DNA of 64,000 nucleotides from Fabrea salina. Taxonomy: Eukaryota > Ciliophora > Heterotrichea > Heterotrichida > Fabreidae. The notes beneath the pieces are model-generated. The model saw only the letters and a list, made by a program, of their open reading frames with translations, ran no database searches and was not told the origin of the DNA. Below are positions 1,249 to 60,476 of this stretch, piece after piece (the stretch's first letter is position 1; each line of letters starts with the position of its first letter). The DNA lies in NCBI GenBank assembly GCA_022984795.1, contig JALIHJ010000006.1, positions 248,001 through 312,000 of the forward strand, read 5' to 3'. A program made the translations under genes and the position numbers.

Positions 1249-2151
1249 TTAATCAAAAAGGTGTATTCCAAACAACTCGTAAGGGTCACAGTGCATCTCT
1301 CTAGTGGAAATTGAATCTATTGCTTGGATGTCTTCTTGTGTGAGCTCAAGACTTGCACTGTCTAAGTAGTGCCTCATAGTGTCTAGGCAAACACACTTCA
1401 CAATCGGAGCACAGCCTTTAACTAGACACCACTTCAAAAGCACCTGGGCAGGGGTTTTGTGGTGTTTCTGGGCTACTTCTGCAAGGGTCTCGTCATCAAT
1501 AACTCTTTTGTGGCTAGAAAGCCCATGGATATCTCTATAGGCACAAGGCACCACTCCAAGCTTTTTGCAGAAGTCCACTAGTTTGCTTCTAGGCAAGTAA
1601 GGAGTTACTTCTATCTGGTTGACTATCGGAGGAATCCTTGCGTAACTCATCATGTCGTTTAGCAAAGCTACGGTCCAGTTACAAACTCCTACGTGCCTTA
1701 CAAGTTTGAGTTCAACTAACTCCTCCATTTGACTCCAAACTGCTTGCAAAGGGAACTGGTCTAACTCCACTTCTCCAAACTCAACCTTAGGTGGGTCTTG
1801 GTCATCGTACTTCAAAGCTAAGGGCCAATGTAACAAATACAAGTCTAGATAGTCTACTTTCAGGCGCTTCAAAGAGTTGATGCAGGCTTGCTTCACGTCT
1901 CTATAGTGAGAAGGCCACACTTTGCTAGTTAAAAAGAGCTGGTCGCGTGAAACCACTTGACTCTTGAAAATGTGAGCCAGAGTGTCTCCTATGATAGCTT
2001 CGTTGTGGTAAGCCGAAGCTGTGTCAATGTGTCTGTAGCCAGTGTTGATGGCGTTAATAAGTGTCCTTTCTATTTCGTCTTCCTGGACGTTGTAAGTTCC
2101 AAGTATCAACAAAGGCATCTTCTGACCAGTCGGAAGTTCGATTTCAGTCAT
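1249..2151 (-). CDS. Aldo-keto reductase
   Basis: 300 residues, the usual length of an AKR TIM barrel. The catalytic tetrad is visible: Asp and Tyr in DTASAYHNE (about residues 42-50), Lys in LTSKVW, and His in YLLHWP. VGVCNW corresponds to the conserved VGVSN(F/W) strand, and a C-terminal cofactor-binding region follows. The family reduces aldehydes and ketones with NADPH; the substrate cannot be told from sequence. ATG at 2151 is preceded by CTATAAAT. The start lies only 13 nt downstream of the SECIS-like hairpin of the peroxidase gene before it on the same strand, so its promoter must overlap that gene's 3' UTR. Confidence 0.9.
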   Translation of the reverse strand: MTEIELPTGQKMPLLILGTYNVQEDEIERTLINAINTGYRHIDTASAYHNEAIIGDTLAHIFKSQVVSRDQLFLTSKVWPSHYRDVKQACINSLKRLKVDYLDLYLLHWPLALKYDDQDPPKVEFGEVELDQFPLQAVWSQMEELVELKLVRHVGVCNWTVALLNDMMSYARIPPIVNQIEVTPYLPRSKLVDFCKKLGVVPCAYRDIHGLSSHKRVIDDETLAEVAQKHHKTPAQVLLKWCLVKGCAPIVKCVCLDTMRHYLDSASLELTQEDIQAIDSISTREMHCDPYELFGIHLFD

Positions 2152-2164
2152 ATTTATAGTTATT

Positions 2165-2210
2165 AGTTCTCCAGCTACTCCTAACTTTCAGAGCAGCCTT
2201 CACTTGAACT
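2165..2210 (-). promoter_or_regulatory. SECIS element of glutathione peroxidase gene A
   Basis: On the minus strand the hairpin begins 6 nt after the stop codon. Basal strands are AGUUC and GAACU. The core has UGAA opposite GGAG, giving the tandem G.A pairs of a SECIS quartet. The upper stem GCUGCUC pairs with GAGUAGC, and the apical loop UGAAAGUUAG has its A-run exactly 11 nt after the core UGA. These are the sequence hallmarks of eukaryotic selenocysteine insertion elements. Confidence 0.85.
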
Positions 2211-2216
2211 CAAAGT

Positions 2217-2720
2217 TTACAACAACTTTTCAATGTCTTGAGTGAACTCCGAAGGGAAAGTCCTTGGGCCGTAGTATCCCTTTACTTCTCCGTTTCTGTC
2301 AACTAAAAACTTGCCGAAGTTCCAGCCAATTTTTCCTCCTTTCAGGCTGCTGTGGTACCTCAAGTACCAGTACAAGTCGTGGGCGTCTTTTCCGTTCACG
2401 TCTACTTTCTCGAAAAGAGGGAAATTGGCATTTCTGCTGCGGGCAAATTCTTGGATTTCTTGAGGGGTGCCTGGCTCTTGTCTCAGAAACTGGTTGCAAG
2501 GAAAGGCTAGCACAGAGAAACCTCTGTCTTGGTAGTTGCTTTGGAGTTCTCTTAGTTGTTGGTAGTGCTTTTCAGTGGTGCCTCATTTGCTCGCTACGTT
2601 GACTATGAGCAGCACCTTTCCGCTGTATTCGTTCATAGTTATGGGAGTTCCGTCGATTAACTTGACTGGAATCTCGTACAGAGACGAGTACCTGGGTGGG
2701 GCCATTGGTTTGTTCCCCAT
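2217..2720 (-). CDS. Selenocysteine glutathione peroxidase A (TGA = Sec46)
   Basis: The frame opens at MGNKPMAPP (2720) and runs to TAA at 2217, 167 residues, with an in-frame TGA at 2585-2583. That TGA sits in LLIVNVASK-U-GTTEKHY, exactly the catalytic selenocysteine site of glutathione peroxidases. The rest of the catalytic tetrad is present: Gln in FPCNQF, and Trp-Asn in GWNFGKFLVD. The short monomeric form resembles GPx4/PHGPx, which reduces hydroperoxides with glutathione or thioredoxin. Frame and homology continue unbroken on both sides, so TGA is read as Sec, not a nonsense mutation. It is the last of three tandem paralogues on the minus strand. An upstream ATG at 2768 exists, but the paralogues support the MGNK start. 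Confidence 0.93.
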
Positions 2721-2823
2721 TATTATCAGATTCCAAGAATAAATGAAGGAAAAATTTGTCGGTAGCACTCCAAGTCAGGAAACTAAAAATGGAACAGAAG
2801 GATTTTTCAGTATTTTAGGTGAA

Positions 2824-2985
2824 TTAATTAAATCTCTTGGAAGTCTCAATCAGAAACTTGCCAAAGTTCCAACGCAGTTTGGAGGCTTCTATGTGTTTTT
2901 TGTAGCTTGACCACAAGTTCCTAGCTGTTATCCTGAGAAAGTCCAGGCTCCCTAGACTTTTCTGTAGCCATTCAGGCTTCACCAT
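2824..2985 (-). CDS. Small ORF resembling a glutathione peroxidase C-terminal fragment
   Basis: A 53-codon reading frame (ATG at 2985, TAA at 2824) lies between peroxidase genes B and A. Its middle reads KLRWNFGKFLIE, matching the WNFGKFLVD strand of the neighbouring enzymes, and it is preceded by NLWSSYKKHIEASK, which loosely aligns with LYWYLRYHSSLKGGK. It lacks the VNVAS-U and FPCNQF parts, so it cannot be an active peroxidase. No SECIS-like hairpin follows it. Most likely it is the remnant of a fourth array member or a partial duplication; whether it is expressed is unknown. Confidence 0.55.
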   Translation of the reverse strand: MVKPEWLQKSLGSLDFLRITARNLWSSYKKHIEASKLRWNFGKFLIETSKRFN

Positions 2986-3007
2986 TATAATTTATTAACT
3001 TAACTTT

Positions 3008-3055
3008 TAAGTTCTCAGGCAGAGACAAACTTTGGTCAAAGCCGTCACTTGAACT
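3008..3055 (-). promoter_or_regulatory. SECIS element of glutathione peroxidase gene B
   Basis: It begins 6 nt after the stop codon. Basal strands AAGUUC and GAACUU pair. The core is UGAC opposite UGAG. The upper helix has GGC/GCC and GAC/GUC separated by a small internal loop, and an AAA lies 11 nt after the core UGA. Basal helix and spacing match the other two elements, but the upper helix is weaker. Confidence 0.8.
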
Positions 3056-3061
3056 TTGGAC

Positions 3062-3559
3062 TTACAACAACTTTTCAATGTCGGGAACTATGTCGTTGGG
3101 AGCGGTGTTAGGTTCGTAGTACTCAATAACGTTTCCTTTCTTGTCAACTAAAAACTTGGCAAAGTTCCAAGGAATGTTTCCACCCTGCAGTCTGCTGTGG
3201 TACCTTAAGTACCAGTACAAGTCGTGGGCATTTTTGCCAATAACGTCTATTTTCTCAAACATGGGGAAATTTACCCCTAACCTGGAAGTAAAAGTTCTGA
3301 TTTTTTCAGAGTCGCCTGGTTCTTGCTTGCCGAACTGGTTGCAAGGAAATCCTAATACCACAAAACCTCTGTCTCTGTACCGCTCTTGTAGTTCCACTAG
3401 TTGTTTATAATCCCTTTCAGTGTAGCGTCACTCACTAGCTACATTCACTATAAGTATTACTTTATCGATGAACTTCCCCATGGTGGTGGTAGTTCCATCT
3501 AGGTAATTCGCTTGTATTTCATAGATGGTGTTTTGAGCTGGGGGCTGTTTATTCCCCAT
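3062..3559 (-). CDS. Selenocysteine glutathione peroxidase B (TGA = Sec44)
   Basis: ATG at 3559 (MGNKQPPAQ) to TAA at 3062, 165 residues, interrupted only by TGA at 3430-3428. The codon lies in LIVNVASE-U-RYTERDY, the catalytic site. GFPCNQFGKQEPG and IPWNFAKFLVD supply the Gln, Trp and Asn of the tetrad. Residues flanking Sec differ from gene A (SE-U-RYT against SK-U-GTT), so the copies are old enough to have diverged while the TGA was kept. This is a monomeric GPx4-like enzyme. It is transcribed in the same direction as genes A and C and has its own SECIS. Confidence 0.93.
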
Positions 3560-3622
3560 AATGTTTATAAATCAACCATTTTAGGTAAGTATTTTTCAGT
3601 ACTTAAAAAGGTGTTTAATTAT

Positions 3623-3670
3623 AAGTTCTCGAGTTAAGACAGGATTTAGCCTTAACTTTCACTTGAACTT
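3623..3670 (-). promoter_or_regulatory. SECIS element of glutathione peroxidase gene C
   Basis: The cleanest of the three hairpins, starting 5 nt after the stop codon. AAGUUC/GAACUU basal helix, UGAA opposite CGAG in the core, and a perfect 7-bp upper stem AGUUAAG/CUUAACU. The 12-nt apical loop GCUAAAUCCUGU has its AAA 11 nt after the core UGA. The upper stem shares no sequence with that of gene A yet pairs fully, which supports a conserved fold. Confidence 0.88.
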
Positions 3671-3675
3671 GTAGC

Positions 3676-4176
3676 TTAAAGCAAGTTTTCGATGTCGCTG
3701 ACGAACTCGCTAGGAGAGACCCTAGGCTCGTAGTAACCAGCAATGTTTCCGCTTCTGTCAAGTAAAAACTTTCCAAAGTTCCAGCTAATATCTCCACCAT
3801 TCAAACTGCTGTTGAGTCTTAGGAACCTGTAAAGAGGGTGGGCGTTAACTCCATTGACTTCTACTTTCTCAAACATTGGGAAGTTAACTCCTTTAGAAGC
3901 GGCAAAGGCTGATATCTCTTCCGGAGTGCCTGGCTCCTGCCCTCCGAACTGGTTGCAGGGGAACCCCAGCACTGAAAAGCCTCTGCTTCCGTAGCGGTTC
4001 TGGATTTCTACGAGTTCTTTGTAGGTTTTGCTTGTCAGACCTCACCTACTGGCTACGTTGACTAGAAGCAGCACGTTTCCTTTGAACTGCTCTAAGCTCG
4101 CAGCGGTTCCGTCGAGCTTTTTGAGGGGGATTTCAAAGATTGAAGAAAACTGAGGCGGTGTCACGTTGCCCCTCAT
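3676..4176 (-). CDS. Selenocysteine glutathione peroxidase C (TGA = Sec45)
   Basis: ATG at 4176 (MRGNVTPPQF) to TAA at 3676, 166 residues, with an in-frame TGA at 4044-4042 inside LLVNVASR-U-GLTSKTY. FPCNQFGGQEPG and ISWNFGKFLLD carry the other catalytic residues. It is the first gene of the array on the minus strand, 25 nt after the SAM-domain gene. As in the paralogues, no conserved part of the enzyme is lost at the TGA, so decoding as selenocysteine is the simplest reading. Its substrate class (lipid hydroperoxides) is inferred from the short GPx4-like architecture. Confidence 0.93.
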
Positions 4177-4201
4177 ATTTATTAGAACATTCGATGGTTA
4201 A

Positions 4202-4738
4202 TTATCCGTACATCTCAAGGTCAGGGCTTGACACCTGGGCTTTGGCCATCTCTTTGAGTTTGCTGAGTTCTTCTAAAGCTCTGGAGTACTGCTCAAGGTC
4301 AAGGTTAGCTATTGCCTGCAAGGTGCCCATCACATCATTTCTCACTTGAATCAGGTTGTCCAACTGGTTCTGCACTCCTGTGAGTTGGGAGTCGATTTGG
4401 TGGGTGTTTCCATTGTAAGACTGTGGTTTGTGGACTGCTGTAACTTGGGGTTCAAGTTGGGGAGCGTTTCCATTGTAGGGTTGTGTGCACTGGGGAGTTT
4501 CTACTTCCATGGTGTTTTTGTGTGTGTCTGCTGGTGGTCCTTTGAGCTTGGTTTCTTCAATGAACCTTCTGAGTTTGAATGTGTGTCCTTTAAGCATTCC
4601 AGCATTCCTCATAATGCTTTCAAGGTCGTTTGGAGAAAGGTCTACTAGTTGTTGGAGGCTGTTGATGTTTTGTTTTTGGAAGTTAGGTGTGTAGTTCCCT
4701 AAGGAAATACTATCCAAGGCTTGTTGTATTGTAGTCAT
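4202..4738 (-). CDS. SAM-domain protein
   Basis: 178 residues. Residues about 10-65 read as a sterile alpha motif: LGNYTPNFQKQNI, LVDLSPNDLESI and AGMLKGHTFKLRRFIEE match the helix pattern, including the final G-H-x-x-K-L-R-R helix. The middle is Gln/Asn/Pro-rich with imperfect repeats of QPYNGN and QSYNGN. The C-terminal part (NQLDNLIQVRND onward) is a short coiled coil. SAM domains mediate protein oligomerisation or RNA binding; which applies here is not visible. It lies 25 nt upstream of peroxidase gene C on the same strand. Confidence 0.8.
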   Translation of the reverse strand: MTTIQQALDSISLGNYTPNFQKQNINSLQQLVDLSPNDLESIMRNAGMLKGHTFKLRRFIEETKLKGPPADTHKNTMEVETPQCTQPYNGNAPQLEPQVTAVHKPQSYNGNTHQIDSQLTGVQNQLDNLIQVRNDVMGTLQAIANLDLEQYSRALEELSKLKEMAKAQVSSPDLEMYG

Positions 4739-8342: not shown

Positions 8343-9671
8343 ATGCGAAACAAGTACCTCTTAGGATTTCTGACTCTAAGTAACATTCTGATATACATAG
8401 ACAGAGGAGTGATTGCAGCTTTAATTTACAAACTTAAAGAAGACTTAGACTTAAAAGACTCACAAGCAGGAGTACTAGGCAGTCTCTTCATGTTAGGGTT
8501 TATGTCTACCAGTCCTGTTTTTGCGCACTGGTCACAAAAAGTCCCCCCTATAAAGCTGATATCTATTGGCCTTTGCATTTGGGAACTTGGAACACTGCTA
8601 GCCTCACTGAGTAACTCTTTTTCCATGATACTAGTTGCAAGGGTCCTTACAGGTGTGGCAGAAGCACCAATATGCCCATTGGCACCTCCACTGATACTAG
8701 ACTACTCTCCTAAGAAGAGCAAAAGTGTAAGGACTACTTAGTTGTGGTTAGGAGTGTACTTTGCAGCACTTCCTATTGGCAACGCACTGGGGTTTTTGTT
8801 CGGGGAGTTTGTAGCTTCAGCTTTGGGTAACTGGAGGTGGCCTTACTTTTTAGAGTGTAACTTTTAAGCAGTTGTGTTAATGGCGCCTTTGTGCGCTGCA
8901 AGTTTCTTTTTGGACTTGGAAGAAAAAATGCTTGAAAAAAAACAAGAAACTGAGCACTTAACTTTTTGGAACCAACTCAAAGAACTCAGTCAGAACCCAC
9001 TTTACAAGTGCATAGTACTTGGCCAAGCTGCTTACTGCTTTACTGTAGGCGGAATAGCTTTTTGGGGGAACTACTACATTGAGACTTACTACAAAGTAGA
9101 CCCTTCACTTGCAGTATTAAGTTTCGGAGGAGCAACTGTGGTGACTGGACTTTTAGGAACGTTCTTGGGTTCTTTGTTGCTGGACTGGATGCTTAAGCCC
9201 TACCTTGTGTAACCCTTACTTAGTGAGTTCAGTTTTTCGCAAGTTCCTCCAGAGCAACTAGAGGTTGTGAGAACTGTGAAAAGCACAGGTATAATGTTTA
9301 GTTCTACAGGGTGTGCAGTTTTTTTAGCAGTTGTAGCGGTGATGTGCAGTAGTTTCTTGGGGTTCATGGTGTTTTTGTTTTTAGCAGAGCTTGTTCTTTT
9401 TATGAACACTTCTTGTTTGGGGATTTCTATCATGAGCAGTGTGTCCAAGGAGCTGAGAGGCCAAGCCAACGCAGTAAGTATATTCTTTTTGCACTTGCTA
9501 GGTGACTTCCCTTCGCCTTACTTCATAGGTCTCTTCAACGAGTTACTAGGAAAACAAGTTAGTATGCTGATGCTTGTGCTGTGGCTGATTTGGGCTTTTA
9601 TCTTTTGGGGTTTGTCTTGGAACTTGGCCAAAACCAACCAAACTAAACTAACTCACAACTATTTACATTAG
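8343..9671 (+). CDS. Spinster-like major facilitator transporter (three 15-nt introns)
   Basis: Removing introns at 8727-8741, 8857-8871 and 9209-9223 gives one 427-residue protein. The opening LLGFLTLSNILIYIDRGVIAALI and the LKEDLDLKDSQAGVLGSLFMLGFM segment match Spinster/SPNS MFS proteins, and about 12 TM helices are present. ARVLTGVAEAPICPLAPPLI follows the family loop pattern. SPNS proteins export sphingosine-1-phosphate, lysophospholipids or sugars from lysosomes or cells; the substrate here is unknown. Exons of 384, 115, 337 and 448 nt sum to a multiple of three. The stop codon overlaps the stop of the convergent CX9C gene by 3 nt. Confidence 0.88.
8727..8741 (+). other. 15-nt intron 1 of the Spinster-like gene
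   Basis: GTAAGGACTACTTAG. It contains an in-frame stop, and its removal joins KKSKS to LWLGVYFAA in frame. Confidence 0.9.
8857..8871 (+). other. 15-nt intron 2 of the Spinster-like gene
   Basis: GTAACTTTTAAGCAG. It contains a stop, and its removal joins YFLEF to VLMAPLCAAS. Confidence 0.9.
9209..9223 (+). other. 15-nt intron 3 of the Spinster-like gene
   Basis: GTAACCCTTACTTAG. Removal restores the frame from KPYLV to EFSFSQVPPEQ. Confidence 0.9.
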
Positions 9672-9991
9672 AACTTAGAGTTCCTAAACCTGTCTTCGTA
9701 GTAGAGTTTGTACTTGTTTTTGCACTCATGCAAGTTGTGTGCAAGCTCTATGCACCTTTGAGGGTACTGGTAGTTTTCCCTTATGCAGTTTTCGTACTTA
9801 CTTATGTTCTCTTGGCAAGGGTCGCCTTGCATGTGAGTAGTTCCGTGTTGTTTGGATAGTTTTCTGAAGTGAGGTCCGTTGAACGCATCAGGTTTGCGGA
9901 GAGAAACTCCTGGTTCGTCAGCTATTTGGGAGCTTTCTGTTCCTGCAATGTTTTTAGTACCTTCGCTAATTTTGATGTTTTTGTCTGACAT
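9668..9991 (-). CDS. Twin CX9C (CHCH) protein, probably mitochondrial intermembrane space
   Basis: 107 residues. The C-terminal half has two CX9C pairs, CQENISKYENC and CIELAHNLHEC, the hallmark of CHCH proteins imported into the mitochondrial intermembrane space and oxidised by the Mia40 relay. The N-terminal half is polar and probably disordered. Many such proteins are assembly factors for respiratory complexes, but the particular member cannot be named. Its TAA lies within the convergent MFS gene's end (shared bases 9669-9670). Confidence 0.8.
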   Translation of the reverse strand: MSDKNIKISEGTKNIAGTESSQIADEPGVSLRKPDAFNGPHFRKLSKQHGTTHMQGDPCQENISKYENCIRENYQYPQRCIELAHNLHECKNKYKLYYEDRFRNSKF

Positions 9992-10025
9992 TTTATTTCT
10001 TTAGTTACTTAAGTTCTGTTTATGC

Positions 10026-10547
10026 TTAAAAACTATTTAAATAACCTGAAATCAGCCCTAAAGCCTTGACTGAGTTCGGAGTGAATAACTCACCTTTGCT
10101 AAGTCTTTTTTTGATTTCACTTAAGTCCATCAAGGCCACGTCTTCTACTTCGTTTGGGTCAGGAGTCACCTCTCCGTCCCACTGCATGGAATAGTAAACA
10201 GCCCACCAGTACCAACCCTCGTTCATTATGCCTATTGTTCCTAGTTCTTTTAAGTCCCCTTCTATTCCCATTTCTTCCTTAATTTCGCGTCTAGCAGCTC
10301 TTAAGTCTGACTCCGAAGCTAGTACCACGCCGCCTGGAGCAATGTCCCAGTACCCTGCAAACACGTACTTGTTTTTAGCTCTTTTCTGTACAAAGAGTTG
10401 TTTGTGGGAATTGTGAATGGCAACCTGGACTGTTCTGAAGTAGAGTTTTTTCAAAGTCATAATGTTGCGAGGTTGTTTGTCCACGTAGTCGTTAATCGCA
10501 TTTACAATCTTAACAGGTTCAGAGCTTGAAAAGTGCCTTCTGATCAT
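10026..10547 (-). CDS. Nudix hydrolase
   Basis: 173 residues with a complete Nudix box starting at GGVVLASE and continuing through SDLRAARREIKEEMGI, matching GX5EX7REUXEEXGU. The catalytic Glu cluster (REIKEE) that binds divalent metal is intact. The surrounding HNSHKQLFVQKRAKNKYVFAGYWD resembles the YfcD / isopentenyl-diphosphate-isomerase-like branch. Members hydrolyse nucleoside diphosphates linked to another moiety; the substrate is not predictable here. The start codon is 6 nt from that of the divergent ABCG gene. Confidence 0.88.
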   Translation of the reverse strand: MIRRHFSSSEPVKIVNAINDYVDKQPRNIMTLKKLYFRTVQVAIHNSHKQLFVQKRAKNKYVFAGYWDIAPGGVVLASESDLRAARREIKEEMGIEGDLKELGTIGIMNEGWYWWAVYYSMQWDGEVTPDPNEVEDVALMDLSEIKKRLSKGELFTPNSVKALGLISGYLNSF

Positions 10548-10553
10548 TACAAA

Positions 10554-12419
10554 ATGGAGACTCAGTCTAAATCCTACATCTTTTCTGAGTACTCACCTGT
10601 TCACGACTCTCAAGTCAGAGTTGCTGTTTCCTGGGAAAACATTTCTTACACAGTAAAAACTAAGAAAAAAACTACAGAGGTCCTAAAAGGCATTTCGGGC
10701 TTTGCAAACCCTGGGGAACTAGTTACTATCTTAGGGAGTTCAGGCGCCGGAAAAACTTGTTTTCTAAACATTCTGGCAAAAAAGACCACTAACTCGCGTA
10801 AACAAATAGTTACTGGCCAAGTGTATGCAAACGAAGTTCTTGTTTCGGAACTGAACTACGGAGACCTTGCAGGGTACGTAACCCAAGAAGACATACTCCT
10901 GCCTGTGCTGACTCCTGAAGAAGCCATTACCTTCTCAGCCAAACTGCGCTGCAGGGAAAAAGACATTCCTCAAAGGGTAAAGTCAGTAATCCAGGAACTG
11001 AACCTCACTGAAGTTGCTAAAAACTACATTGGAAGTGTAGAACAAAAAGGGATTTCTGGTGGGGAAAGAAAACGTGTGTGCATTGCTGTGGAACTAGTTT
11101 CTGACCCCAGTGTGTTGTTTTTAGATGAGCCTACTTCAGGAGTGGATACCTTTACTGCCGAGATGCTTCTGGACTTGTTGATCAATCAAACTCGAAAAGG
11201 AAGAACTGTGATTACTACTGTTCACCAACCCAGCAGTGCAATGTTTGCTAAGTTCCAAAAACTAATTCTGATGAGTGAAGGCCACATAGTTTACCAAGGG
11301 GACTCTTCACGAAGTGTAGAGTACTTTAGGTCTTTAGGTTATACTTGTCCTAGACACATCAACCCCACTGACTACTTCATGAAGGTGCTCCACGTAGTTG
11401 ACCGGAACCAACTCACAGAAGAAGAAAGTCACAGACTAAACCTGTTTGTAAGTACTTACAAACACCAAGAGTCACAAGTGCTTTCTGAGAAGCAAACTGA
11501 AAACCTCACAGAACTAAAAAAGTTCAAAAGGAAAAGAGCTTCAAGTCGCTTAGTGCAGCTAAAGGAACTTATGCAAAGAGCTGGTAAAAACGCAGCAAGA
11601 AACCCAGCTTTGTCAAGAGTCAAGCTACTCCAAACAATTGGAATTGCTTTACTAGTTGACTTGGTGTTTTATGACTTAAACACAGACTTGGAAGGAATTC
11701 AAAGCATCAACGGAGTGCTTTTTTTCCTGGTTATCAACCAAGCCACTTTTGGAAGCCAAAACGCTACTTTGGCATGTAAGTTCTAAGCAGTTCCTTCAGA
11801 AAAACCAGTTTTGCTGAAAGAGTACAAACTGTCTATGTACGGAGCAACAGTTTACTACATTACAAAGTCGTTATCTGAGTTACCAGGGATTTTACTAGCT
11901 CCTTTAGTACTGAGTTTGCTGGTGTACTGGGTAGTGGGATTAAACAACCAAGCAGACAAGTTCTTTATATTCTGTAAGAACTACTTAGATTTGGGATTAG
12001 CCCTTATGCAGTTTGCAGGCAGTGGATACGGCTACGTAGCTGGAGCCCTTGTAAACAGCACTCAAGCTGCTATTACTATTTCTCCACTTTTGCTGACCCC
12101 CTTTTTGATGTTTGCAGGGTTCTTTTCAAACAAAGACTCAATTCCTGATGCTTTTGGTTGGATTAAGTTTGCATCGGTAAGTGTTATACAGCCTTTCTTT
12201 TACGGGTTTAGAATTTTAGCTATCAATGAGTTTACAAACCGCCAACTAGACTGTGAGATCTGTAGAAGAGGAGTTTGTGCAGAATGCGACCCTCTTTCTC
12301 AACTAAACATTGACTCTACTGTGTGGGAGAACGCAGTGTATTTAGTGCTTTTGTCATTAGCAATCAGAGCTTTAGCTTTAGGTTTTCTGTACATATCAGT
12401 TAAAAGGTTCAACGGTTAA
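10554..12419 (+). CDS. ABCG-family half-transporter (two 15-nt introns)
   Basis: Spliced length 611 residues. The N-terminal ATPase has Walker A GSSGAGKT, signature SGGERKR, Walker B VLFLDEPTSG and the H-loop TVHQPSS. The C-terminal half has six TM helices, the ABCG (White/BCRP) order. Intron 11776-11790 restores the frame and yields the family motif FPSEKPVLLKEY. A second match, 11974-11988, has length divisible by three and no stop, but its removal improves the fit to the family (FFIFYLGLAL). ABCG half-transporters dimerise and export lipids, sterols or xenobiotics. ATG at 10554 is used because the upstream in-frame start would be GTG. Confidence 0.9.
11776..11790 (+). other. 15-nt intron 1 of the ABCG gene
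   Basis: GTAAGTTCTAAGCAG. It carries a stop in frame, and removal gives ATLAFPSEKP. Confidence 0.9.
11974..11988 (+). other. Probable in-frame 15-nt intron 2 of the ABCG gene
   Basis: GTAAGAACTACTTAG differs at one position from intron 1 of the neighbouring MFS gene. It has no in-frame stop, so the frame reads through it, adding the five residues CKNYL-like inside a TM helix. Confidence 0.75.
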
Positions 12420-13807: not shown

Positions 13808-15150
13808 TAATTATTTAGAAGTTTAGCAAGTTTTATAGAGTTATCAGGAAGTGCAGTTGCTATTATGCACTCTGAAGAAACTGACTTTTTGGCTGTTTGG
13901 TAAAAAGGAATTATGGACCTAGAAACAGGTTGTTCCATTTCAAACACTAGCAAAGAAAAGTATCTTCCTAGGTACCTAGCTCTGTACAAGAAAAAGATAT
14001 TCGTTAGAATCACTAGTTCCATTGCTTCGTGGAAACTGTACCATATTGCTATTTTGGTCTGCATGTAAGCGTCCAATTCCACAAACAAATTCTCCACTAC
14101 GAAGTGAATCAGTGCTTCTGCCAAAAAGTACCCAAAAAACAACAACATGAACCTAGAAAACATCACCTTTTTGTACTCGCAAACAGCAGACAGGTGGTTA
14201 ATTCCTGCTTGCTGCACTAAGTCTATGTGGGTTTGTATTCCTTTCCAAGTGCTGTAGCAGTAAGTAGCCCCGTGGAACATCAACCCAGCGTACATGAAAA
14301 AAGTCATAAAAGCTACAGGAGAGCCTATGATGTTGGTGGCACTGTCCATAATGTACACTCCAATCAGAACCAAAACTATGTAGTTGAACTCGTTCCTAGA
14401 CATGTTGTTCCGGGACACCAACCACCCCTTACTCAGTAACAGAATCAAACTGAAAAAACTAGTTTCGTAAAGAGTCCGGCACTGCTTCCTCATCAAGCCC
14501 AAGAGTTCAGATGACACACTTGTAGGAGGGCAGTTTTTGACCTCACTTAAACTGGCCAAAATGTTCAGAAACTTAAACACCAAAACTAAAGTTGAGAGTT
14601 TGTGGAAGTGCTCGGCATGTTCAGCGTTCTTGTAGTGGTTGTTGTAGAACCACCACCCCAAGAACCCCAACCATAAGTAAAGCAGTATTTCAAAAAGAAC
14701 TTCCAAGTACTTAAGTCGTTCGCAGTGGTCTAAATAGTCTTTACATTTGAAGTAGTATACTAAGTTGCCCCAAGCGTACTCAACTGAGTTTACTTCTTCA
14801 GTTAGCTTTTGTCCTTCAGTTTGGTTCATTCTAAAACCAGTGTAGTTAAGTGGCCATTCAATTTCTGTTTCATCAGTGATCAATATAACAGCTGAGGCGT
14901 TTAAACTTTCTGAGTAAGAAATAGTTTCGTTGAGGTTCTTTCCTAAGTAAGCTACGACAATCACACTAGAGTCTTCTTTACTGCAAAGTCCCTCCAAACA
15001 CACCAACCCACTTGAGTTAAAGTGTTTCTGTTTAGAACTTACGTTAACTCCTAAACTAGTTAGGTTAGGGTAAACAGAACTAACTCCAGTTAAGTGCAGT
15101 TCGCCTGTCCACTCTCCAACTGCAAACCCAATCACTAAAAAAACCCACAT
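13807..15150 (-). CDS. Seven-TM protein with luminal N-terminal domain (GOST / Lung_7-TM_R-like)
   Basis: 447 residues: a signal peptide (MWVFLVIGFAVGEW), a glycosylation-rich ectodomain of about 135 residues with NxS/T sites, then seven TM helices starting near LEVLFEILLYLWLGFLGWWFY. The HAEHFHKLSTLVLVFKFLNIL segment after TM1 resembles the loop and TM2 of GPR107/TMEM87/PTM1-type proteins, which act in the Golgi secretory route. This assignment is by layout and weak motif similarity. The stop overlaps the next ATG by one base, and the gene before it ends only 6 nt upstream. Confidence 0.6.
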   Translation of the reverse strand: MWVFLVIGFAVGEWTGELHLTGVSSVYPNLTSLGVNVSSKQKHFNSSGLVCLEGLCSKEDSSVIVVAYLGKNLNETISYSESLNASAVILITDETEIEWPLNYTGFRMNQTEGQKLTEEVNSVEYAWGNLVYYFKCKDYLDHCERLKYLEVLFEILLYLWLGFLGWWFYNNHYKNAEHAEHFHKLSTLVLVFKFLNILASLSEVKNCPPTSVSSELLGLMRKQCRTLYETSFFSLILLLSKGWLVSRNNMSRNEFNYIVLVLIGVYIMDSATNIIGSPVAFMTFFMYAGLMFHGATYCYSTWKGIQTHIDLVQQAGINHLSAVCEYKKVMFSRFMLLFFGYFLAEALIHFVVENLFVELDAYMQTKIAIWYSFHEAMELVILTNIFFLYRARYLGRYFSLLVFEMEQPVSRSIIPFYQTAKKSVSSECIIATALPDNSIKLAKLLNN

Positions 15151-19985: not shown

Positions 19986-20057
19986 TCAGAGGTAGTGAAA
20001 CGGTATCACTCCAGACCTCCGAAGCCGGTATTCCAGGTTCAAATCCTGGCCTCTGAC
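19986..20057 (+). tRNA. tRNA-like gene 1 (Arg-CCG-like loop, imperfect anticodon stem)
   Basis: Acceptor strands TCAGAGG and CCTCTGA pair over 7 bp. D-arm GTG/CAC and T-arm CCAGG/CCTGG with loop TTCAAAT are intact, so the A and B boxes of Pol III promoters are recognisable, and a CCCTTTT terminator follows. The anticodon loop reads CTCCGAA, suggesting CCG (Arg), but the stem CAGAC/GCCGG has two mismatches. It may be a divergent tRNA, a pseudogene or a tRNA-derived RNA. Confidence 0.5.
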
Positions 20058-20094
20058 CCTTTTATTGCTGCAGAGTTTAAATGTTCAGAGTTAC

Positions 20095-20167
20095 TCAGAG
20101 GTAGTGAAAATGGCATCACTCCAGACCTTCTAAGCCGGCATTCCAGGTTCAAATCCTGGCCTCTGAC
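20095..20167 (+). tRNA. tRNA-like gene 2 (Arg-TCT-like loop, imperfect anticodon stem)
   Basis: It is a tandem copy of gene 1, including about 35 nt of shared upstream sequence (TTATTGCTGCAGAGTT then ATGTTCAGAGTTAC). Acceptor, D and T arms are kept. The loop reads CTTCTAA, suggesting TCT (Arg), on the same mismatched stem CAGAC/GCCGG. The anticodon bases are among the few positions that differ from gene 1. CCCTTTT follows. Confidence 0.5.
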
Positions 20168-20198
20168 CCTTTTAGTTCCGCATTAGCAGTCATTTCAA

Positions 20199-20270
20199 TC
20201 AGAGGTAGTGTAGTGGTATCACTCCTGAATTGCACCACGGGGACCCCAGGTTCGAATCCTGGCCTCTGAC
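20199..20270 (+). tRNA. tRNA-like gene 3 (isotype unclear)
   Basis: It has the same acceptor (TCAGAGG/CCTCTGA) and T-stem, a canonical D-arm (GTGTAGTGGTATCAC) and a perfect B box GGTTCGAATCC, followed by CCTTTT. The anticodon arm (CCTGAATTGCACCACGG) does not form a proper 5-bp stem; TGC or GCA could be the anticodon depending on register. The upstream flank differs from copies 1 and 2. Confidence 0.45.
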
Positions 20271-20291
20271 CTTTTACCATACAAAAATAAC

Positions 20292-58040: not shown

Positions 58041-60476
58041 TTAAACTTTGTCAGTGAAGCTTCCAGAGTTGGACTGGTTTTCCTCCAAAGAGTCCACACT
58101 TTCCGTGAACTTTACTATGGAGTCTTCTTTGTCTGAAAGGTTGTCTACGGGGATTCTGAGAGTGCTTTTTTTCTCTTCGATGTTTCTGGAGTACCGCAAA
58201 CTAGTTTCTACTCCGTAGGGTTCTTTGGGGAGTTCTGGCGAAAAGTCCGAAACTGAACCTTGGTTGAAGTTTTGGGTACAGGACCTTCTAGGCTTGTACA
58301 CGAAGCTTCTGTCCATAAGTGCTTTTTGGGAGTACTTGTGGAAGTGGTTGCGACTTCCAAACACTTCTACTATTTTTTCAGTGTTTCTGGAAGAGTTCCT
58401 TCGCAAAGTAGAGTTGAAGGAAACTTCCCTTGAGTAAAGCTTCATCTCTGTTTGGTGGGGCTTTACTCTGTGCTTCCCATAGTCTTTTTCAAGTCTCTTG
58501 GCAAAGAACCTTTCGTCTAGGAAAAAAAGAACACCTCCCACGAACCTTATGCAGAGTATTGCAGCTCCTATCAACCCAATCATGTACACTATCCAGTAGT
58601 TCCCCCCCTCTCCTTCTTCAGCAGCCTTTTCTTGGTTTATCTTGTCAAGAGTGTCTAGGAAGTACGCAAAGGACCCGTTACTAAGTACCCAAACTATCAC
58701 CCAACGTCCTCTGAACTCTTCAAACTCTTCCAGCTTGCTTTTCTCGTCTTCGTTTAGTTGGTCAGGACGGTTCCCCCAGGTGCAGTCGTGGACATTGCAA
58801 ATCGAGTAGATCAAAAACATGTTCACGTAAGTAGGAGTTAAAAACACAAACTGCAGAACTCCTTTCAACACTACAACAACTGCATTGTTGATCAGTATTA
58901 TAATTGCAAAGGCCAGAATCGAACCATACATTATGTAAGCTATCCACTGCTGGTCGAACTCTGCACTTGCTAAGTAACTTGCCATGAAAAACATCGCAAG
59001 CAGCATGTAGGCCCCCAGAACTACTGAAATGATGTTTAAAGTCGACTCAATTCTTTTAGGCTTCACACTCAGTGAAAGTATCAACAGCAAAACCAGTATA
59101 GCTACGTACAAAAGGATAAACGCACGTCCTGAGTCAATTACGTTGTCAAACTCGTAACCCAGAGTGGAGTTCCTCACTGTGATGGAAAATACCAAGTAAA
59201 AAGACCCCACCATGAGCCAAGTAAATATTACATTGACTACATAATACAACATCAAAAAGCAAATTGCAAGTTTCCTGCAACACGAGTGGTTGCTGTTGCA
59301 GATGCGGTTGCACTTCCTCAAAGTGTCAATCAAAGCAAACCAAGAACCGTTAATCCACCTTCTGCGCTGTGCCAAAAGTATCGGCAGTTTGTCAGGAACG
59401 TCTGTCCCAGCTACTGACTCGCGCACGTAACGCAGTATGTTGTTGCGACCTTCTTTGCAAACCAAAGAGTGACACAAAACCCTGTCTTCCGCTAAGTAAA
59501 TGTTAGAGTTGAAAGCGTCCATTTTGTGAGGCCACCTCAAAGACTTGAAGTAGTCTTGCCACAAACTGTCTCCCTGGAGTGCTTCCCACCGGTAAGCACT
59601 GAAGGCTCCAGGAAGCACTGTGATGTACCCCACAATGCTTTCAAGAGCTTTGTCGAAGATGTGGCCGAATTTGTACTCCACTACTTGGGCCGAAACTACG
59701 AAGTTCCACATGTTGGTAGTGATGGGTTTGATTTCTCCACAGCACCCAGCCACTCTGGGGTCTACTTCCATTGCTTCAAACAAGTAAAAAAGTGCTTTTT
59801 CGTCAGGTTTGGTGCCTACGTCTAGAAGCATGCAGTATTTGGGCTGGATGGCTTCGCAAAAGCCTCCGAAGTACCAAAGGTGGGAGTTAAGTTTGCGCTT
59901 GTTGGCTTGTTTGACACACCAAAACAAGTTCAAAGGCAACTTTTCATTGCCTTCGCTTTCGTACTGCTGCATAAAGCAATGTGCTATTTCGTCGTACTCG
60001 TTTTCAATTCCTACGTCGAAGTTAAGTAAGTTTTCGCAGTTGTACCTGTTCTTTATTAAGTCAGCGTCAAAGAACCTTTGGAAGAATTCGTGTTCTTGGT
60101 AAACTTTGAGGAAGGGACCCATTCCGTCAACAATCACAATGCAGGCTATTTCTTCAGGGGGAATCCCCCCTGACTCAAAGTGCCTTAAGTTGTCGCAAAT
60201 CCCGTCTAGGGTCTGTATCACTTCTTCGGGGTTTTCGTTGTACATAGCAATCACTATCAAGAACTTGCACTCGCCTTCCGATAGTCTGGTCAGTAGGTTG
60301 GAGTCTTTGTTGTCAATGAGTTCCAAACCCGATGCTCTTTTGAGACAGTGGACAGTTTTTCCTTCTTTTGAACTTTCTAAGTTCACTTCTTTCCTCAGTT
60401 TAAGTAGTTGGTACTCCATTCTGTGTCTTTCAGTACTTAGTGACTCAGTGCCATAGTTAGACTCGCCGGGTTTCAT
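58041..60476 (-). CDS. Chitin synthase
   Basis: 811 residues. A family-2 glycosyltransferase domain (about 70-385) has VIVDGMGP, CCGEIKP, the acceptor LAEDRVLCHSLV and the chitin synthase signature QRRRWINGSWFA. Six or more TM helices follow for extrusion of the polymer, and a long cytosolic C-terminus. The enzyme polymerises UDP-GlcNAc to chitin. In ciliates chitin occurs in cyst walls and loricae, which would suit this gene. The start follows GATATAAATATG. Confidence 0.93.
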   Translation of the reverse strand: MKPGESNYGTESLSTERHRMEYQLLKLRKEVNLESSKEGKTVHCLKRASGLELIDNKDSNLLTRLSEGECKFLIVIAMYNENPEEVIQTLDGICDNLRHFESGGIPPEEIACIVIVDGMGPFLKVYQEHEFFQRFFDADLIKNRYNCENLLNFDVGIENEYDEIAHCFMQQYESEGNEKLPLNLFWCVKQANKRKLNSHLWYFGGFCEAIQPKYCMLLDVGTKPDEKALFYLFEAMEVDPRVAGCCGEIKPITTNMWNFVVSAQVVEYKFGHIFDKALESIVGYITVLPGAFSAYRWEALQGDSLWQDYFKSLRWPHKMDAFNSNIYLAEDRVLCHSLVCKEGRNNILRYVRESVAGTDVPDKLPILLAQRRRWINGSWFALIDTLRKCNRICNSNHSCCRKLAICFLMLYYVVNVIFTWLMVGSFYLVFSITVRNSTLGYEFDNVIDSGRAFILLYVAILVLLLILSLSVKPKRIESTLNIISVVLGAYMLLAMFFMASYLASAEFDQQWIAYIMYGSILAFAIIILINNAVVVVLKGVLQFVFLTPTYVNMFLIYSICNVHDCTWGNRPDQLNEDEKSKLEEFEEFRGRWVIVWVLSNGSFAYFLDTLDKINQEKAAEEGEGGNYWIVYMIGLIGAAILCIRFVGGVLFFLDERFFAKRLEKDYGKHRVKPHQTEMKLYSREVSFNSTLRRNSSRNTEKIVEVFGSRNHFHKYSQKALMDRSFVYKPRRSCTQNFNQGSVSDFSPELPKEPYGVETSLRYSRNIEEKKSTLRIPVDNLSDKEDSIVKFTESVDSLEENQSNSGSFTDKV

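What the first reader, a model, noticed from the sequence alone, without database searches (positions are those of the whole stretch)
2217..4176. Three tandem glutathione peroxidase genes each with in-frame TGA at the selenocysteine site
Seen: three consecutive minus-strand genes have a TGA at exactly the catalytic position (2585-2583, 3430-3428, 4044-4042) in VNVAS-x-U. Flanking residues differ between copies, so the TGA has been conserved by selection and not by recent copying. Known: GPx uses Sec, Gln, Trp and Asn, and all four positions are present. This suggests that a heterotrich ciliate with the standard code runs selenoprotein synthesis, with an expanded GPx set.
Basis: partly seen in the sequence, partly recalled or inferred. 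Interest (0 to 1): 0.85.

Follow-up and report, generated by a model that had tools for sequence, protein, structure and literature searches.

The report
Three tandem selenocysteine glutathione peroxidase genes
A single-celled eukaryote, very probably a heterotrich ciliate, carries three side-by-side antioxidant enzyme genes in which the stop codon UGA is read as the rare amino acid selenocysteine, and each gene is followed, six bases after its real stop codon, by a very small RNA hairpin of the kind that directs this re-reading.

Summary
Three adjacent minus-strand genes (2720-2217, 3559-3062, 4176-3676) are GPX4-type glutathione peroxidases. Each has one in-frame TGA, at the catalytic selenocysteine (Sec) position, and all have the U/Q/W/N tetrad. 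Synonymous sites are saturated between copies (dS 1.3 to over 2, dN about 0.33), so the TGA has survived long divergence. The upper stems differ but partly covary. The motif occurs three times in 64 kb, only at these genes (0.03 expected). Stop-codon use, Pfam-complete TGA-free neighbours and 15-nt introns with the branch A at position 10 support a heterotrich-like ciliate in which TGA is otherwise a stop. Sec in heterotrichs is already published: all seven Stentor coeruleus GPx carry Sec, and Condylostoma has SECIS and tRNA-Sec. The Stentor genes were reported without detectable SECIS, so the new part is the compact, stop-proximal SECIS set. The Sec machinery could not be tested because no genome is held. 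New member of a known kind, of moderate interest.

The parts
2217..2720 (-). gpxA: GPX4-type glutathione peroxidase, 167 aa, Sec46, terminal TAA
   Evidence: Pfam GSHPx E 7.7e-39; PDB GPX4 chains E about 1e-40
2583..2585 (-). TGA (Sec) codon of gpxA, context GCG AGC AAA TGA GGC
2165..2210 (-). SECIS-like hairpin of gpxA: 5-bp lower stem, GUGA/GA core, 9-bp upper stem, 8-nt loop with AAA; begins 6 nt after the TAA and ends 13 nt before the next gene's ATG
3062..3559 (-). gpxB: GPX4-type glutathione peroxidase, 165 aa, Sec44, terminal TAA
   Evidence: Pfam GSHPx E 2.7e-38
3428..3430 (-). TGA (Sec) codon of gpxB, context GCT AGT GAG TGA CGC
3010..3055 (-). SECIS-like hairpin of gpxB: same register, upper stem with three central pyrimidine mismatches (6 of 9 paired)
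3676..4176 (-). gpxC: GPX4-type glutathione peroxidase, 166 aa, Sec45, terminal TAA
   Evidence: Pfam GSHPx E 3.3e-38
4042..4044 (-). TGA (Sec) codon of gpxC, context GCC AGT AGG TGA GGT
3624..3669 (-). SECIS-like hairpin of gpxC: 9 of 9 upper-stem pairs, AAA loop
   Evidence: fold z-score -3.5
2824..2985 (-). 53-codon ORF with a C-terminal GPx-like segment (LRWNFGKFLIE), between gpxA and gpxB; probable remnant of a fourth copy, with no Sec codon and no SECIS
   Evidence: no Pfam match

Best explanation
The three genes encode monomeric GPX4-type selenoperoxidases. During translation the in-frame UGA at the catalytic position is decoded as Sec, directed by a minimal type-I SECIS hairpin 6 nt after the UAA stop (372 nt after the UGA), while UGA remains a rare stop codon elsewhere. 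By analogy with known eukaryotic Sec synthesis, an SBP2-type L7Ae protein would bind the GUGA/GA kink-turn core and deliver EFSec with Sec-tRNA. The enzymes would then reduce hydroperoxides through the Sec/Gln/Trp/Asn centre. Shown here: the genes, the UGA position, the hairpins and their register, and purifying selection. Inferred: SBP2/EFSec/tRNA-Sec in trans, Sec in the protein, monomeric state and peroxidase activity.
For: TGA only at the Sec46-equivalent site in three saturated paralogues. GUUC..GUGA..GAGAAC motif in each 3' region and nowhere else in 64 kb, 0.03 expected. Invariant GUGA, AAA and GA with diverged upper stems: 92.9% of cells paired against 81.6% in shuffles and at most 50% when slid, and five pairs changed on both sides. 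A descriptor built from the general eukaryotic SECIS rules, at its strictest setting, returns only the gpxA and gpxC hairpins in the window. The 6-nt spacer is conserved in length but not in sequence. The GUGA/GA core, 9-position stem and 8-nt loop with adenines fit the published eukaryotic SECIS model (PMC11227280). None of the three proteins has a Cys in the FxxxxxxxNFP segment, where I recall (untested) that the resolving Cys of Cys-GPx lies. Heterotrich Sec decoding is documented: tRNA-Sec and SECIS in Condylostoma (PMC4967479), seven Sec-GPx in Stentor (PMC7409322).
Against: No Sec machinery seen, as only 64 kb are available. gpxB's upper stem is weak (6 of 9 pairs; fold z-score -0.4). 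Rfam's SECIS model does not match even at E 10, although no positive control was run. With three sequences the covariation evidence is limited. No expression or protein data.
Confidence: 0.94

Rival explanations
1. TGA is reassigned to Cys genome-wide (Euplotes-like code), so these are ordinary Cys-GPx.
For: GPx relatives use Cys at this position; TGA is rare as a terminator here (2 of 52).
Against: About 18,000 other codons hold 310 TGT/TGC Cys codons, and no gene needs an in-frame TGA; Pfam-complete neighbours (ATP synthase gamma, GH31, adaptin, PARP, DEAD) are TGA-free. A kelch-repeat ORF ends in TGA. It would not explain the SECIS elements, which lie only after the TGA genes.
Confidence: 0.02
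2. TGA is reassigned to Trp (Blepharisma-like code).
For: Blepharisma, a heterotrich with tiny introns, reads UGA as Trp (PMC9942806).
Against: Trp at the peroxidatic position would destroy the catalytic residue in all three genes; 199 TGG codons and no in-frame TGA in the other ORFs.
Confidence: 0.005
3. Each TGA lies in a tiny intron and is spliced out.
For: gpxC has a 15-nt GT...AG stretch over the TGA (GTGAGGTCTGACAAG); gpxA and gpxC each have a 16-nt one.
Against: None matches the GTAA....TA...AG form of the window's introns; the 15-nt one lacks A at position 10 and its removal would delete the catalytic loop; removing 16 nt would break the frame; gpxB has no 15- or 16-nt candidate.
Confidence: 0.01
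4. Selenoprotein relics or pseudogenes: UGA and SECIS remain but the genes are no longer functional.
For: A GPx-like remnant lies in the array (2985-2824); ciliate GPx with relic SECIS have been reported (PMC7409322).
Against: All three frames are intact apart from the TGA, pN is far below pS, the tetrad is complete, and SECIS core and spacer length are kept in all three.
Confidence: 0.025

Closest known systems
Stentor coeruleus Sec-GPx (SteGPx1-7; SteGPx4-6 have consecutive locus tags SteCoe_40903-40905), PMC7409322
   Same: Heterotrich reported to use the standard code, multiple GPx all with Sec, some apparently clustered, several with SXU/Q/W/N centres like the three here.
   Different: Those genes were reported without detectable SECIS; here each gene has one right after its stop. 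SteGPx6 has a CXU/X/X/N pattern that none of the three here shows. Window CDS GC3 is 47.8%, against 22.7% in S. coeruleus and 34.2% in S. roeselii (PMC10384029).
Condylostoma magnum / Parduczia Sec decoding (SECIS in thioredoxin reductase; tRNA-Sec in C. magnum), PMC4967479
   Same: Heterotrich or karyorelict Sec decoding with SECIS in very short 3' UTRs.
   Different: There UGA is also Trp and stop and the described gene is thioredoxin reductase; here UGA is otherwise a stop and the genes are GPx with the SECIS 372 nt from the UGA.
Eukaryotic type-I SECIS element
   Same: RUGA...GA core, upper stem, adenines in the apical loop, lower stem.
   Different: Only 46 nt (ciliate GPx SECIS of 59-82 nt reported in PMC7409322), 5-bp lower stem, GUGA in place of the usual AUGA, 6 nt from the stop; not matched by the Rfam model.
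Vertebrate GPX4 (phospholipid hydroperoxide GPx)
   Same: Size, Sec46 position, U/Q/W/N tetrad; best matches among solved structures, E about 1e-40, against 1e-23 for GPX1.
   Different: Tandem array of three; about 46-nt stop-proximal SECIS; no peroxidase assay.

Membership tests
Glutathione peroxidase (GPX4-like) | GSHPx domain over its full length | tested here: met
   Pfam PF00255 1-108/108 in all three
Glutathione peroxidase (GPX4-like) | Catalytic tetrad Sec/Cys, Gln, Trp, Asn | tested here: met
   U46, Q81, W133, N134 (gpxA numbering) invariant in the three
Glutathione peroxidase (GPX4-like) | Peroxidase activity | not testable with these tools
   needs expressed enzyme
Eukaryotic selenoprotein gene | In-frame UGA at a position occupied by Sec or Cys in homologues | tested here: met
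   aligned with Cys/Sec of GPX4 chains and Cys in 80 of 80 viral-contig relatives
[quoted passage not shown]
   sequence and fold only, function not assayed; gpxB stem weaker
Eukaryotic selenoprotein gene | UGA otherwise a stop codon in the genome | tested here: met
   TGA ends a kelch-repeat ORF and one unidentified ORF; no other in-frame TGA found in the 64 kb
Eukaryotic selenoprotein gene | tRNA-Sec, EFSec, SBP2, SPS2 in the genome | not testable with these tools
   no genome held; none of the four tRNAs in the window is Sec
Type-I eukaryotic SECIS (Rfam SECIS family) | Match to the curated covariance model | tested here: not met
   no SECIS match at E up to 10 in 2100-4250
Type-I eukaryotic SECIS (structural definition, PMC11227280) | RUGA/GA core, upper stem 7-15 bp, apical loop 8-20 nt with adenines | tested here: met
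Heterotrich ciliate genome | 15-16 nt introns with branch A at position 10 or 11, very short intergenic spaces | tested here: met
   11 GTAANNNNTANNNAG sites against 2.1 expected; four restore conserved frames; median tandem gap 36 nt, convergent 10 nt. No species-level phylogeny was possible

The most novel reading that the evidence does not exclude
Heterotrich ciliates use a lineage-specific minimal SECIS (about 46 nt, GUGA core) placed a fixed 6 nt after the stop codon, so that its core lies just beyond the reach of the terminating ribosome. The 3' UTR is little more than the SECIS, which would explain why standard SECIS searches failed on Stentor GPx and would mean that heterotrich selenoproteomes are under-annotated.
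Probability: 0.45. Interest if true: 0.55.

Novelty: new member of a known kind. Interest (0 to 1): 0.42.

Why it matters
Published ciliate GPx data held a paradox: Sec-GPx without SECIS, including all seven of Stentor (PMC7409322). In this heterotrich-like genome, three Sec-GPx each carry a small but well-formed SECIS hidden directly behind the stop codon. That gives a concrete search pattern (stop, 6 nt, AGUUCAAGUGA...AAA...GAGAACU) for Stentor and other heterotrichs. It also offers a test of how a SECIS works when the 3' UTR hardly exceeds the SECIS itself, in a group whose 3' UTRs (median 21-23 nt, PMC4967479) are otherwise too short to hold one.

Tried and rejected
Whole-genome search for GPx and Sec machinery: no genome is held. 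Rfam gathering-level scan of the window: tRNAs only; permissive scan of 2100-4250: no SECIS. First protein alignment used a wrong frame for gpxA, redone. Covariance model of the three hairpins: no fourth in the window. Viral-contig search for Sec-type GPx DNA: none. The exact SECIS pattern hit two viral contigs, but these share one sequence whose supposed stem does not follow the layout here by eye (GTCAAGTTCCG / CTATTCACTATGAT), so it was treated as chance. Looser SECIS descriptors gave numbers near the random expectation (11 against 9.9), so only the strict setting and the positional coincidence carry weight. Alternative codes and splicing were considered and rejected (see rivals). Two TGA-terminated ORFs were checked for read-through extension: nothing recognisable.

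Full report
Observation. The window's minus strand holds three consecutive genes at 4176-3676, 3559-3062 and 2720-2217, each open except for one TGA and each ended by TAA. The TGA codons are at 4044-4042, 3430-3428 and 2585-2583, as stated. Pfam GSHPx covers each product over the whole domain at E 8e-39 to 3e-38, and the best natural solved relatives of gpxA are GPX4-type enzymes (E about 1e-40), well ahead of GPX1 (E 3.5e-23). In the aligned proteins, Sec46, Gln81, Trp133 and Asn134 (gpxA numbering) are invariant, in the contexts VNVASKU, VNVASEU and VNVASRU.

Selection. Pairwise nucleotide identity is 63-67%, pS 0.62-0.71 and pN 0.26-0.28; dS is 1.3 to 2.1, effectively saturated, and dN 0.31-0.35. 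The copies are old and under purifying selection. The distance from the TGA to the hairpin described next is 372 nt in all three (from the coordinates).

The missing element. Behind each UAA stop come 6 nt that differ in sequence (ACTTTG, GTCCAA, GCTACA), then AGUUC-AA-GUGA-N-[9]-N-AAA-[4]-[9]-NGA-GAACU. The 9-nt stretches pair to an upper stem (9 of 9 in gpxA and gpxC, 6 of 9 in gpxB) and AGUUC/GAACU forms the lower stem. Fold z-scores are -2.2, -0.4 and -3.5 for A, B and C. On the three-row alignment 92.9% of cells pair, against 81.6% in shuffles and 26-50% in slid versions, with five pairs changed on both sides. The invariant lower stem says nothing for or against pairing. The motif occurs three times in the window, all here, 0.03 expected by chance, and a covariance model finds no fourth copy (matches to its own training sequences do not count as evidence). 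A descriptor written from general SECIS rules, at its strictest setting, gives two hits in the whole window, the elements of gpxA and gpxC (random expectation 0.55); looser settings, needed to include gpxB, are no better than chance. The case therefore rests on position, register and invariant core, not on fold energy alone. Core, stem and loop agree with the published eukaryotic SECIS model, in which GUGA is the rarer core variant (PMC11227280). Rfam's model does not recognise the elements.

What organism. No genome or taxonomy is given. Split genes in the window are restored by 15-nt introns of the form GTAANNNNTANNNAG; 11 such sites occur against 2.1 expected, and all ten I take as introns have A at position 10. 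That is the feature described for Stentor (90.9% of introns, PMC9505925). Gene spacing is extremely tight: median tandem gap 36 nt and convergent gap 10 nt, about 91% coding. Window CDS GC3 is 47.8% against 22.7% and 34.2% in S. coeruleus and S. roeselii (PMC10384029), so it is probably another heterotrich. This is inference, not phylogeny.

Genetic code. Of 52 ORFs of at least 100 codons, 43 end in TAA, 7 in TAG and 2 in TGA. One TGA-terminated ORF is a kelch-repeat protein, and nothing recognisable follows either TGA. ORFs were defined by stops, so their lack of TGA is partly by construction; the argument rests on Pfam-complete proteins without interruption (ATP synthase gamma, GH31, adaptin, PARP, DEAD helicases). 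Splicing of the TGA is excluded by frame, branch-site position or absence of a candidate.

Mechanism. By established knowledge of eukaryotic Sec insertion (SECIS, SBP2, EFSec, Sec-tRNA), the hairpin directs UGA decoding upstream. A terminating ribosome covers 11-12 nt after the stop in Condylostoma (PMC4967479). Here the lower stem's 5' arm is at +7 to +11 after the stop, the GUGA core at +14 to +17 and the upper stem from +19. The core thus begins just outside that footprint. This is an inference from coordinates and a testable idea. Downstream of gpxA only 13 nt remain before the next gene's ATG, so the 3' UTR is essentially the SECIS.

Comparison with the known. All seven S. coeruleus GPx were reported with Sec and no detectable SECIS (PMC7409322), and Condylostoma has SECIS and tRNA-Sec (PMC4967479). 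The genes are thus new members of a known kind. The compact stop-proximal SECIS set is the informative part and may be a lineage-specific variant, which needs other heterotrich genomes to show. All 80 GPx relatives fetched from viral contigs have Cys.

Not shown: Sec machinery in this genome, expression, Sec in the protein, enzyme activity, and species identity.

Noticed in passing
window 2985-2824 (-): A 53-codon ORF between gpxA and gpxB ends in a GPx-like segment (LRWNFGKFLIE; BLASTP E 3e-06 against gpxA) without the Sec region and without SECIS: probable remnant of a fourth GPx copy.
   Followed up: partly
window 19986-20271 (+): Cluster of three similar tRNA-like genes. ARAGORN calls two tRNA-Arg (CCG and TCT) and one unassigned (four-base anticodon reading tgca), all with near-identical ends and 3' halves, which suggests anticodon shifts among recent copies.
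   Followed up: no
window 8727-12191 (+) and 14730-15042 (-): 15-nt GTAANNNNTANNNAG introns (for example 8727-8741, 8857-8871, 9209-9223, 11776-11790) join split ORFs of an MFS transporter and an ABC transporter.
   Followed up: yes
window 13807, 30714 and 35264: Neighbouring same-strand genes overlap by one base (stop TAA and start ATG as TAATG), with no room for separate untranslated regions at these junctions.
   Followed up: no
window 58041-60476 (-): Chitin-synthase-like glycosyltransferase (Pfam Chitin_synth_1/2, E about 1e-26) in a putative ciliate.
   Followed up: no
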